DNA of 64,000 bases, taken from assembly GCF_002286985.1 (NCBI RefSeq), contig NZ_NSKC01000002.1, positions 124,001 to 188,000 of the forward strand, in the 5' to 3' direction. Origin of the DNA: Halorubrum salipaludis. Its GTDB lineage: Archaea; Halobacteriota; Halobacteria; Halobacteriales; Haloferacaceae. The notes below the pieces were generated by a model, which was not told the origin of the DNA, searched no databases, and saw nothing but the letters and a program-made list of their open reading frames with translations. Of this stretch, positions 3,684 through 7,152 are shown in pieces (within the stretch, counting starts at the first letter, position 1; the number at the start of each line of letters is the position of its first letter). The position numbers were made by a program, and so were the translations under genes.

Positions 3684-3757
3684 GGGCCAATAGCTCAGTC
3701 AGGTTGAGCGCTCGGCTGATAACCGGGAGGTCCACGGTTCAAATCCGTGTTGGCCCA
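3684..3757 (+). tRNA. tRNA-Ile (GAT anticodon)
   Basis: The acceptor arm pairs GGGCCAA (3684-3690) with TTGGCCC (3750-3756), with discriminator A at 3757. The anticodon stem CTCGG/CCGGG encloses the loop CTGATAA, giving anticodon GAT. The T arm holds GGTTCAAATCC. CCA is not encoded. An AT-rich island begins directly downstream, so the gene is a plausible integration target, but no second copy of its 3' end was found. Confidence 0.95.
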
Positions 3758-4137
3758 CCTACTGCGCGTCCGGTCTTCGACCGGGCGGGATTGGTGGGCT
3801 GGGACTCCCCAGCCACCCAATTTCGGTATTCTAACACTCCTGAGATGAGAGTGCAAAATCAGAGGACGTATCGCAGTTTTAGATAGCTCTCCGTCCGATC
3901 AACGAGCTCGAGTTAGAGGATGATTGGATCTGTTCGTGTGAGGATCTGCTGAGGGGTCGAAGGGATGTACGTGGTAGACTGCGACGTGAAGCAGTTAATC
4001 AACAACGAGAATATGAGTCGATAAATCGCTCTCCTTCGTCATAATATTCTATCACTCCGCGGTTTCGGAGCTCTAAAATATGTTCTCGGACTGTCGTCCG
4101 TGGCATTTATTGGATATACAACTGTTCTTGTTGGTAA
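3758..4137. other. Gene-free, AT-rich left border of a genomic island
   Basis: No coding frame is supported. An imperfect hairpin (3793-3817, GGTGGGCTGGG against CCCAGCCACC) follows the tRNA by about 35 bases and may act as a terminator. From about 3815 base composition drops sharply compared with the host, marking the start of the island. A likely promoter for the next gene lies in the last 40 bases (TTTATTGGATATACA region). Confidence 0.5.
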
Positions 4138-4725
4138 ATGTCAATTCCTGATTATGCAGAACACATTGACACCGACTTCTGGAAACCCATCTGGGATGGC
4201 GTGGTAGAAACTTTAGACATGCTTGATACGCAGTACCAGTCAATCAATCGGTCCGTCATCGAGATCGCCGTTTTGCACTTACATATGACGAATAATATTC
4301 TGTATTCAAAAACGGGCCGTGGTCCTGTTGATATGGATTCAATGTATAACGAGCCATATGTTTTTTCTGGAGATTGTGAAGACCAAAGTGTTCAGTTGGC
4401 ATCAGCGTACAAACATGCGGGATACAGATGCTTGTTAGTCGCTATTCTGGATGCGAACGATTCTAACGGACACCTGCTTGTACTAGTTGAGAATCCGCTT
4501 AATTCTCAAGCGGAATTTGAACGCCAATTGAGGCAATTCTATATGTCTATTCATACCCCTGCTGTACCAACGGGTAAGACGAAATACTTCGGTGAAGAGT
4601 GGTATATTGCCGACCCAGTCAACAGTATGTTTATCGGTGATGTAACCTCGTCTGGGATGTATATCGACGGAGACCCAAGCGGTTACTTTGAATTTGTGAA
4701 CGAACTACAGGTCGAGAAGGTTTGA
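4138..4725 (+). CDS. Transglutaminase-like cysteine-peptidase-fold protein
   Basis: A 195-residue protein in the AT-rich island. It shows the transglutaminase-like triad in order: Cys80 in SGDCEDQS, His112 in NGHLLVLVE, and Asp159 in WYIADP. The GDCED motif, a following helix and the H/D spacing are typical of the transglutaminase-core superfamily, whose archaeal members are mostly thought to be proteases or peptide-processing enzymes. There is no signal peptide or membrane segment, so it is probably cytoplasmic. Codon use favours A/T third positions, unlike flanking genes, which suggests transfer. The rhomboid-like gene follows after 70 bases on the same strand. The fold call is good; the substrate is unknown. 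Confidence 0.7.
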   Translation: MSIPDYAEHIDTDFWKPIWDGVVETLDMLDTQYQSINRSVIEIAVLHLHMTNNILYSKTGRGPVDMDSMYNEPYVFSGDCEDQSVQLASAYKHAGYRCLLVAILDANDSNGHLLVLVENPLNSQAEFERQLRQFYMSIHTPAVPTGKTKYFGEEWYIADPVNSMFIGDVTSSGMYIDGDPSGYFEFVNELQVEKV

Positions 4726-4795
4726 GGTACGGTAAATATATGAATAAAGTCGGGGCTCCCAGTCGCATATAGCTCAATACAAAACGTAGAGTAAC

Positions 4796-5629
4796 ATGGT
4801 AGAGACAACCTCTCCGCATCATCAAGAATGGAGCTCAGATCTCGCTCTCATTCTATCAGTCCCGATCCTGCTTACATCAATTCTTTTCTTCACACCAACC
4901 AGCCTCCAACAGCAACTCGCACTCAGACCAACCGATCCACAGTGGTACACGGTGTTTACGGCGGCGTACGTCCATGCGGGCGTTGACCACCTCCAGAGTA
5001 ACGTCGTCGGATATCTCCTCGCGGTGAGCTACGCATATTGGCTCTGTCTCCACACTCGTCGACGCCGATGGTTCAGGCGGACGACGGTCGGCCTGCTGAT
5101 CGTGACGCCGATCGTGGTCAACGGGGTCGATCTGCTGCTCTTCGGTACCTACCTCCCCGAGATCGAGGGACTTTCTCGCGGCTTCTCTGGTGTCGTCGGC
5201 GGGTTTGGTGGGTTCCTGTTGGTCGCGTTCGTGGTCGCCGTTCGCGATACCTACAACTCGGAACTCGCGCAGATCGTCGGTGTCGCGCTCGTCCTGCTGC
5301 TGTTGCAGCTGATCGACGTGGTGTATGCCGGAATGGTACGGCCACTCGTTGCCGGGCTCGTCACGTTCGGGATTGTCATGCAGGTGATTGGGGTCCTCTA
5401 CGAGCGTGGGTGGGAAATTCCGGTCATCGAAGCATCACCGCGGACGCTCGCACTTCGCGCCATTTCTGGGACGCTTGTGCTGAGTGTGTTAGCGATTCTG
5501 GTGCTCCAAATGTTTCCGGGGACTCTGGTGGAAGGCGGGACGTTCGTGAATATCGTCGCTCATGGAGTGGGATTATTGACTGGGATCGTGTTATCTACGA
5601 CAGCCACAAAAGTGAGTACACAGCGCTGA
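4796..5629 (+). CDS. Rhomboid-like intramembrane serine protease
   Basis: A 277-residue membrane protein with about six to seven helices. Rhomboid landmarks are visible: HAGVDHLQSN (residues 60-69, the H-x4-HL-x2-N element of TM2), GFSG with candidate nucleophile Ser131 in TM4, and AHGVGLLTG with candidate His256 in the last helix. Rhomboids cut membrane proteins within or next to the bilayer. It sits in the island between the transglutaminase-like gene and a convergent orphan membrane protein. Its base composition is intermediate between island and host. Pairing of two putative proteases suggests, but does not prove, joint processing of a membrane target. Confidence 0.8.
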   Translation: MVETTSPHHQEWSSDLALILSVPILLTSILFFTPTSLQQQLALRPTDPQWYTVFTAAYVHAGVDHLQSNVVGYLLAVSYAYWLCLHTRRRRWFRRTTVGLLIVTPIVVNGVDLLLFGTYLPEIEGLSRGFSGVVGGFGGFLLVAFVVAVRDTYNSELAQIVGVALVLLLLQLIDVVYAGMVRPLVAGLVTFGIVMQVIGVLYERGWEIPVIEASPRTLALRAISGTLVLSVLAILVLQMFPGTLVEGGTFVNIVAHGVGLLTGIVLSTTATKVSTQR

Positions 5630-5666
5630 CAAGAGCTAAGGACGGAAGTTAGTATTCTAGTCACTA

Positions 5667-6464
5667 CTAAAGATCCAGTTGTGGCAGACGGATTACGAAG
5701 ATAATAGTGATAGCTATTGACCCTAGCGCCGAAAAGATCAAAAGTATAAATCCAGCAAGTTGTTCAGTGTTTGCCCCAAGAGACGCTGCAGTCTGTACAA
5801 TCCCGGCTAGAAGGAAGAAAACAAATTCGTAATGTGTAGTAGCTCGTTGTCGAACATCTGATTGGATGCTATTATTTATATTAGAAGGCGAATGATGAAA
5901 AGTATTTGATCGGCCTTGGAGAAAAATCGCTGTAATTAGATAACTACCAGCTAGAAGCTGCAAATTCACTCTACCGTAGTATCCCAATGTAAATGGCAAA
6001 GGCGCAAGCAACAAGACAAATCCCACTGGTGCCAATTGTGAAAAGTAGCTCAAATACTCGTCTTTGTATTCTTGATAAGATCCTCTTTCATCATACGGCT
6101 CAGAAAACGCGTCCACATCTGTAGTTGCGCCCCAGATCATATCACCAATACTTTCGATCAGATTGTCAAATTGTTCTATATATTCTGTTGCTGTTACCCA
6201 CGCCAGAAACAAGAATAAGATTCCCACTGACCATTTGATAAATGTGGGATTCAGGATGTCTAGGTTGACAAGTTCAATCAGATCAAATTGAGCTAAAACC
6301 ACTGTAATAAATGAGAATATAAACAATGAGAAGGTGAATATAATTACAATAGCAGCCCCCCCAAACACATCATACAATATCCTAATTACGGCAGACCGGA
6401 TCACATTTCGTATCTTCTTGTCATTTTCTGGATCCACGGGAAGGTCGCTATCATGTTCTGCCAT
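5667..6464 (-). CDS. Orphan multi-spanning membrane protein of the island
   Basis: This 265-residue protein has about five to six hydrophobic helices (about 38-60, 75-98, 145-160, 170-185, 212-230, 238-260). The loop between the second and third, about 50 residues, is soluble and acidic. I do not recognise the family. The gene is strongly AT-rich with AT-ending codons, unlike the host. It is convergent with the rhomboid-like gene, with 37 bases between stops, and its own promoter lies in the AT-rich stretch 6465-6550. It may be cargo of a mobile island. Confidence 0.65.
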   Translation of the reverse strand: MAEHDSDLPVDPENDKKIRNVIRSAVIRILYDVFGGAAIVIIFTFSLFIFSFITVVLAQFDLIELVNLDILNPTFIKWSVGILFLFLAWVTATEYIEQFDNLIESIGDMIWGATTDVDAFSEPYDERGSYQEYKDEYLSYFSQLAPVGFVLLLAPLPFTLGYYGRVNLQLLAGSYLITAIFLQGRSNTFHHSPSNINNSIQSDVRQRATTHYEFVFFLLAGIVQTAASLGANTEQLAGFILLIFSALGSIAITIIFVIRLPQLDL

Positions 6465-6627
6465 AATTTTCGGATAGTTATTATATCCTACTCAGAGTAA
6501 TTATAAACAACTTTTTTGTCTGTCGAAATACACTTTTTGTTTTTACGATCCGCTGAGAAGCTAGTTTTATATTGTAGTCAGATCGGTGATCGGCGTCGAC
6601 CTCGTCAGTGTCGGCTTCGCACTCGTT

Positions 6628-7029
6628 TCAGGTGCGAACGTCCACGCCCGCCAGCTCCCGCGCGAGGTACTCCGCGATCGACACGTCTTCCTCCTCGACG
6701 AACCGGGCGACCTCCTCGCCGTCGGGGGTCTCGACGACGACCGTGGGGATCAGCTCGATCCCGTACTCGTCGACGCCCTCGCCCTCTTTGCCGGTTGGGC
6801 CCTTCGTCACCGGGAAGTGTTCGATGCGGTCGTCGGGGACGCCGGCCGCGGCGAGCGCCGCGCCGAAGGTCGGGAGCTGTCGCTGACAGTCGCCACACCA
6901 GTCGCCGCCCCACACCTTGAACCGGTAGTCGTCGGCCGCGAGCGCGTCGAGGACGGTCTGGTCGAAGTCGTCGGCGTCGGGGGCGTTCGGGGCGCCCTCG
7001 AAGTCGGGATCGAGCGTTTCGAGCGTCAT
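6628..7029 (-). CDS. Thioredoxin family protein
   Basis: This 133-residue protein has a thioredoxin-type active site, WCGDC, at residues 44-48 with Cys45 and Cys48. The cis-Pro region is ELIPTVVV. The GDC variant in place of GPC suggests a thioredoxin-like reductant or bacilliredoxin-like protein rather than classical TrxA. It begins at the ATG at 7027-7029; the longer in-frame extension upstream is Arg/Gly-rich and unlikely to be coding. Cysteine synthase is divergently transcribed 123 bases away, which fits a sulfur or redox context, though this may be coincidence. Confidence 0.85.
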   Translation of the reverse strand: MTLETLDPDFEGAPNAPDADDFDQTVLDALAADDYRFKVWGGDWCGDCQRQLPTFGAALAAAGVPDDRIEHFPVTKGPTGKEGEGVDEYGIELIPTVVVETPDGEEVARFVEEEDVSIAEYLARELAGVDVRT

Positions 7030-7152
7030 ACCCGGTCGTACGCCGGCGACGCTTGTAAACGCCGCGTCGGTGGCAACGGGTCGGTGGGGTCCTTCGGACG
7101 CGTTTTGCCGGTGTCCGCCGGGCCTTTGGGCGGCGCCCTCCTCGGGTTGCAC

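What the first reader, a model, noticed from the sequence alone, without database searches (positions are those of the whole stretch)
3758..6580. AT-rich island beside tRNA-Ile with a transglutaminase-like and a rhomboid-like protein
Directly after tRNA-Ile base composition and codon use change, and three genes appear: a soluble transglutaminase-fold protein with an intact Cys-His-Asp set, a rhomboid with intact Ser/His, and an orphan membrane protein. No integrase, no second att copy and no phage gene are visible. Two putative proteases with an orphan membrane protein could form a sensing or defence module; this is speculative.
Basis: partly seen in the sequence, partly recalled or inferred. 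Interest (0 to 1): 0.6.

Follow-up and report, generated by a model that had tools for sequence, protein, structure and literature searches.

The report
Mobile rhomboid with variable membrane partner
Behind a tRNA gene of a salt-loving archaeon (genus Halorubrum) sits a decayed piece of mobile-DNA cargo carrying a membrane-embedded protease next to a fast-changing membrane protein whose only clear relative is fused to the same kind of protease, which makes it a candidate natural target of a protease class whose targets in archaea are not established.

Summary
In detail: between tRNA-Ile(GAT) (3684-3759) and a thioredoxin-like gene lies a 2.8-kb segment of GC about 0.39-0.58 (flanks about 0.70) with a transglutaminase-like gene (TG), an intact rhomboid (RHO) and an orphan multi-TM protein (ORPH). 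In 48 oriented Halorubrum tRNA-Ile loci, homology typically stops 66-101 bp after the tRNA and the cargo differs: an integration hotspot. In Halorubrum halophilum a RHO of the same clade lies on an element with integrase and attR at this tRNA; the window copy has lost both.

The three genes are not one module: TG occurs beside no other rhomboid found. RHO and ORPH probably belong together. ORPH's only clear relative is the C-terminal extension of a rhomboid of the same 12-member clade (Smith-Waterman 101; shuffles 41±7, 0/500). In that clade 9 of 12 members have a membrane protein of this kind beside or fused to them, in changing orientation; the same screen finds 3 among 87 other rhomboids.

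Most likely ORPH is RHO's dedicated membrane partner, plausibly its substrate (inferred, untested). A defence role is neither supported nor excluded. Single-sequence folds failed. No description of such a pair turned up in the papers searched.

The parts
3684..3759 (+). tRNA-Ile (GAT); integration target
   Evidence: ARAGORN, Rfam RF00005; 53 of 53 genus genomes match the FxsA-tRNA query, two of them only weakly; the last 14 nt are where the homology of the G118 attR begins
3760..3833 (+). Conserved block after the tRNA (hairpin; 3804-3824 nearly invariant); part of the attachment-site duplication in relatives
   Evidence: Conserved in 49 aligned loci; 91% copy of 3745-3833 as attR in G118; 99-bp copy of 3727-3825 in G140; single copy in the own genome
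3909..4011 (+). Probable scar of an earlier cargo gene, read here as a fragment of a DNA adenine methyltransferase (DPPY motif)
   Evidence: 72-78% identity to stretches in L045, L124, L083, L094; open reading frame with DPPY motif in L124; the methyltransferase identity rests on the motif only, not on a family search
4138..4725 (+). TG: soluble transglutaminase-like protein, C80-H112-D159
   Evidence: relatives in mobile contexts
4796..5629 (+). RHO: rhomboid intramembrane protease, S131/H256 intact
   Evidence: Pfam PF01694 above cut-off, alignment A1, tree
5667..6464 (-). ORPH: polytopic membrane protein, convergent with RHO (37 bp between the two stops), homologous to the C-terminal extension of the G103 rhomboid
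6628..7152 (-). Right border: thioredoxin-like gene, shared with five near relatives that carry other cargo
   Evidence: Pfam Thioredoxin, weak; homology resumes at 6628-6638 in L078, L080, L082, L084, L085

Best explanation
The segment (about 3834/3861-6627) is decayed cargo of an integrase-borne element that integrates at the 3' end of tRNA-Ile in Halorubrum; its integrase and attR are gone. The functional core is a two-gene pair: a catalytically intact rhomboid protease (RHO) and a fast-evolving polytopic membrane protein (ORPH). Proposed working: RHO and ORPH meet in the cytoplasmic membrane and RHO cuts ORPH in a transmembrane helix or next to its long polar loop between TM2 and TM3 (or is held in check by it), so that ORPH's activity depends on the protease; in one relative both are one polypeptide. 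TG is separate mobile cargo. Shown: integration site, mobility in a sister species, intact catalytic residues, homology of ORPH to a rhomboid-fused domain, linkage of such partners to this rhomboid clade. Inferred: physical interaction, cleavage, and any role in sensing or defence.
For: Hotspot: 48 oriented genus loci, homology typically stops 66-101 bp after the tRNA, then cargo differs; five near relatives share the right border with other cargo. G118 (H. halophilum): RHO, low-GC TM partner, PadR/orf/integrase operon, then a copy of the tRNA 3' end and conserved block, followed by the DNA that runs from -14 to +384 of the tRNA-Ile end in G121/G128. G153 carries a 65% identical RHO 7.5 kb after the same tRNA. 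ORPH's only clear relative is fused to a rhomboid of the same 12-member clade (SW 101 vs 41 +- 7, 0/500 shuffles; no third clear match in 392 genomes). In that clade one screen (>=150 aa, >=3 TM, GC3 <=0.52, within 1.6 kb) finds a partner in 7/12, plus one fused and one truncated by inspection, against 3/87 other rhomboid loci; orientation differs while linkage stays. Strict count: 6/24 neighbour slots vs 2/372 background genes, Fisher 7e-7. The six full-length 3' or fused partners share a topology met by 2 of 102 other membrane proteins, one of which is next to a rhomboid.
Against: Apart from ORPH and the G103 domain the partners show no detectable sequence similarity to each other, so 'one partner family' rests on topology, defined after looking. 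Within low-GC genes alone the enrichment is only borderline (6/8 vs 2/10, p = 0.05), so part of it may reflect AT-rich islands as such. Three clade members lack a partner. The clade's members are related, so the counts are not independent. Convergent orientation is unusual for a co-regulated pair. ORPH's single-sequence fold failed (pLDDT 50). No biochemical data.
Confidence: 0.5

Rival explanations
1. Unrelated cargo genes collected one by one at a tRNA hotspot; the RHO-ORPH proximity is accidental.
For: Mosaic composition and a scar of an earlier gene; AT-rich membrane genes also occur in hotspots without rhomboids (L095, L104); borderline enrichment when only low-GC genes are compared.
Against: ORPH homologue fused to a rhomboid of the same clade; partners recur in 9/12 clade members while orientation changes.
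Confidence: 0.3
2. The three genes form one sensing or defence module (two proteases plus a membrane protein).
For: TG and RHO are co-directional, 70 bp apart; the segment is mobile cargo; TG relatives lie beside an Eco57I-like restriction-modification enzyme (L044) or an integrase (L043).
Against: No TG near any other rhomboid and no rhomboid near any other TG in the loci held; GC3 differs strongly (0.46/0.67/0.36); no PADLOC hit.
Confidence: 0.1
3. The rhomboid works in regulated intramembrane proteolysis: it frees membrane-tethered winged-helix regulators, of which ORPH is a diverged or split relative.
For: Winged-helix + 2-TM proteins lie beside rhomboids in 10 of 99 loci, 8 of them head-to-head, against 2 of 507 background genes; small wHTH genes lie near the TM partner in L031, L036, L189.
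Against: Reverse test: of 23 further loci with matches to such regulators (1.5-kb flanks, some weak matches) only one (L310) has a rhomboid; no wHTH gene was found in the window segment and ORPH has no such domain.
Confidence: 0.1

Closest known systems
Rhomboid proteases (MEROPS S54, Pfam PF01694), e.g. Haloferax volcanii Rho1/Rho2
   Same: Same family by profile; all catalytic positions present
   Different: Here it is island cargo with a linked variable membrane protein, fused to it in one relative. For the Hfx. volcanii enzymes only putative RhoII targets (PibD, Agl15) are named (PMC9263693) and substrate identification is left to future work (PMC11985538)
Haloarchaeal elements integrated at tRNA 3' ends by tyrosine integrases (SNJ2 type and others, PMC8371274)
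   Same: tRNA 3'-end target with a short core at the acceptor end; in G118 the integrase gene sits at the attR end
   Different: The window segment lacks integrase and attR; the integrase family of the G118 element was not classified here and the protein itself had no Pfam hit
Transglutaminase-like cysteine proteins (PF01841)
   Same: Conserved Cys-His-Asp; six of nine family members match the Pfam model
   Different: The window protein itself is below detection; fold not confirmed; substrate unknown

Membership tests
Rhomboid protease (S54) | Pfam rhomboid profile above curated cut-off | tested here: met
   25.6 vs 22.6 bits, E 1.6e-5
Rhomboid protease (S54) | Ser in GxSG, His in a later TM, HxxxN in an earlier TM | tested here: met
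   S131, H256, H65/N69 invariant in 15 sequences
Rhomboid protease (S54) | Intramembrane proteolytic activity | not testable with these tools
   Needs a cleavage assay
Transglutaminase-like superfamily | Catalytic Cys-His-Asp | tested here: met
   C80, H112, D159 invariant in four relatives; among nine, C80 and D159 kept in all, H112 replaced in L167
Transglutaminase-like superfamily | Profile match of the window protein | tested here: not met
   No PF01841 hit for the window protein; six of nine family members match
Transglutaminase-like superfamily | Papain-like fold | tested here: inconclusive
   AlphaFold without alignment, pLDDT 35.5
tRNA-integrated element | Variable content at a conserved tRNA 3' end | tested here: met
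tRNA-integrated element | Integrase and direct att repeat in the window itself | tested here: not met
   No integrase among the segment's genes, no second att copy; both present in G118
Known anti-phage defence system | Match to a PADLOC model | tested here: not met
   No hit for any of the three proteins

The most novel reading that the evidence does not exclude
A previously undescribed class of mobile two-component membrane systems in haloarchaea: a conserved rhomboid protease paired with a hypervariable six-TM protein that is its dedicated substrate, exchanged as cassettes at tRNA sites and acting as a membrane sensor or virus-exclusion effector.
Probability: 0.2. Interest if true: 0.8.

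Novelty: new variant of a known kind. Interest (0 to 1): 0.5.

Why it matters
In the two papers on haloarchaeal rhomboids read here, natural targets are only putative or left to future work (PMC11985538, PMC9263693). A rhomboid that travels with, and in one case is fused to, a specific membrane protein gives a defined protease-partner pair that can be tested in a genetically tractable haloarchaeon.

Tried and rejected
Three-gene module: rejected for TG. Phage or plasmid origin: no TG or RHO match in phage records and no match of any of the three in plasmid records (ORPH was not searched in phages); none of RHO, ORPH or TG found a relative in viral contigs. Solved-structure search with the TG profile: only weak hits (best E 0.015). 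Second att copy in the window: none. wHTH + 2-TM regulators as the general rhomboid partner: real near 10 of 99 rhomboids but failed the reverse test. One shared family for all partners: no sequence evidence beyond ORPH and the G103 domain. An ORF picker written here (no trained gene finder) was used for neighbours; it prefers long, GC3-rich, acidic ORFs and may mis-call some.

Full report
Observation. Searches confirm the finding. tRNA-Ile(GAT) ends at 3759. GC falls from about 0.70 to 0.39-0.58 over roughly 3.8-6.6 kb and returns to 0.70. Three genes lie there: TG (4138-4725, +), RHO (4796-5629, +) and ORPH (5667-6464, -, convergent with RHO). GC3 is 0.46, 0.67 and 0.36, so the segment is a mosaic. 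RHO passes Pfam's rhomboid cut-off and has the canonical Ser, His and HxxxN. TG keeps Cys-His-Asp. ORPH has no convincing family match.

Locus. All 53 genus genomes searched match the FxsA-tRNA-Ile query, two of them only weakly (G133, G148). Of 49 stretches fetched, 48 could be oriented on the tRNA. Homology to the window typically extends 66-101 bp past the tRNA and then ends; beyond it the cargo differs. Five near relatives keep the same right border, the thioredoxin-like gene and cysK, with 1.3-4.3 kb of other cargo between. The block after the tRNA forms a hairpin, is nearly invariant at 3804-3824 in 49 aligned loci, and occurs once in the own genome.

Mobility. The window has no second att copy. 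In G118 (a contig of the same length is named Halorubrum halophilum B8) a contig carries a 70% identical RHO, a low-GC TM partner, then a PadR-like gene, a second small gene and an integrase-like gene, and then a copy of the tRNA 3' end with the conserved block, 91% identical over 89 bp. What follows matches, from -14 to about +384 relative to the tRNA end, the DNA directly behind tRNA-Ile in G121 and G128. This is an attR. The G118 integrase itself had no Pfam hit; it is called an integrase because its relatives in L036 and L027 match Phage_integrase. Relatives or remnants of it lie in the tRNA-Ile loci of G140, G142, G111, G120 and G106. G153 has a 65% identical RHO 7.5 kb after the same tRNA. 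A stretch at 3909-4011 resembles a DPPY-motif gene fragment found in other islands, which suggests repeated insertion and decay.

TG. Nine family members align; six match Transglut_core. Neighbours of the relatives include an integrase (L043), a HerA-like ATPase (L042) and an Eco57I-like enzyme (L044). No rhomboid lies near a TG in these loci and no other rhomboid locus holds a TG. TG is therefore treated as separate cargo.

RHO and ORPH. A tree of 92 haloarchaeal rhomboids places RHO in a 12-member clade (support 94/89). One screen (at least 150 aa, at least 3 TM, GC3 up to 0.52, within 1.6 kb) finds a partner in seven of the 12 (window, L027, L028, L029, L031, L036, L039); a fused one (L034, G103) and a truncated one (L032) were added by inspection. 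The same screen finds 3 among the 87 other rhomboid loci (L189, L219, L279). The arrangement is convergent in the window, L029, L031 and L036, co-directional in L028, divergent in L027 and fused in L034. ORPH and the G103 extension are homologous: 22% identity, Smith-Waterman 101 against 41±7 for local shuffles, 0 of 500. A profile of the two found no third clear match in 392 genomes (next best E 0.005). On strict criteria 6 of 24 neighbour slots hold a low-GC3 protein with four or more TM and at least 200 aa, against 2 of 372 background genes (p = 7e-7); within low-GC genes alone the contrast is 6/8 against 2/10 (p = 0.05). The topology rule (N-tail 18-50, TM1-TM2 loop up to 50, TM2-TM3 loop 48-85) fits the six full-length 3' or fused partners and 2 of 102 others; it was set after looking. 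Clade members are related, so these counts are not independent trials.

Regulators. Winged-helix + 2-TM proteins lie beside 10 of 99 rhomboids against 2 of 507 background genes, but of 23 further loci with matches to such proteins only one has a rhomboid within the 1.5-kb flanks. This link is kept as a rival, not as the explanation.

Mechanism. Best supported: RHO acts on, or together with, ORPH in the membrane. Shown are intact catalytic residues, homology of ORPH to a rhomboid-fused domain, and recurrent linkage. Cleavage, binding and biological role are inferred.

Literature. Searches for rhomboids with haloarchaea, with winged helix and genomic context, with biological conflict, with membrane-tethered transcription factors and with gene neighbourhood listed no paper whose title or abstract describes such a pair; only a few papers were opened. 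Substrates of the Hfx. volcanii rhomboids are putative or unknown in the two papers read.

Noticed in passing
3790-3825: Hairpin block directly after tRNA-Ile, nearly invariant at 3804-3824 in 49 aligned Halorubrum loci; beyond being part of the att copy its role (terminator, small RNA) is unknown; no Rfam match covers it.
   Followed up: partly
L304, L305, L307, L308, L309, L311: A divergent pair recurs: a winged-helix + 2-TM protein and a small (about 87-126 aa) two-TM protein with a 'GPL..A.DIQ..LAS.P' motif; a similar small protein precedes the rhomboid in L030 and L012.
   Followed up: partly
L042 2610-7399; also L290, L293: TG relatives sit in what looks like a conserved gene row with zinc-ribbon-like proteins and, in L042, a HerA-like ATPase.
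   Followed up: no
L125 2565: A further copy of the conserved post-tRNA block on a second contig of G134, with two integrase relatives nearby.
   Followed up: no
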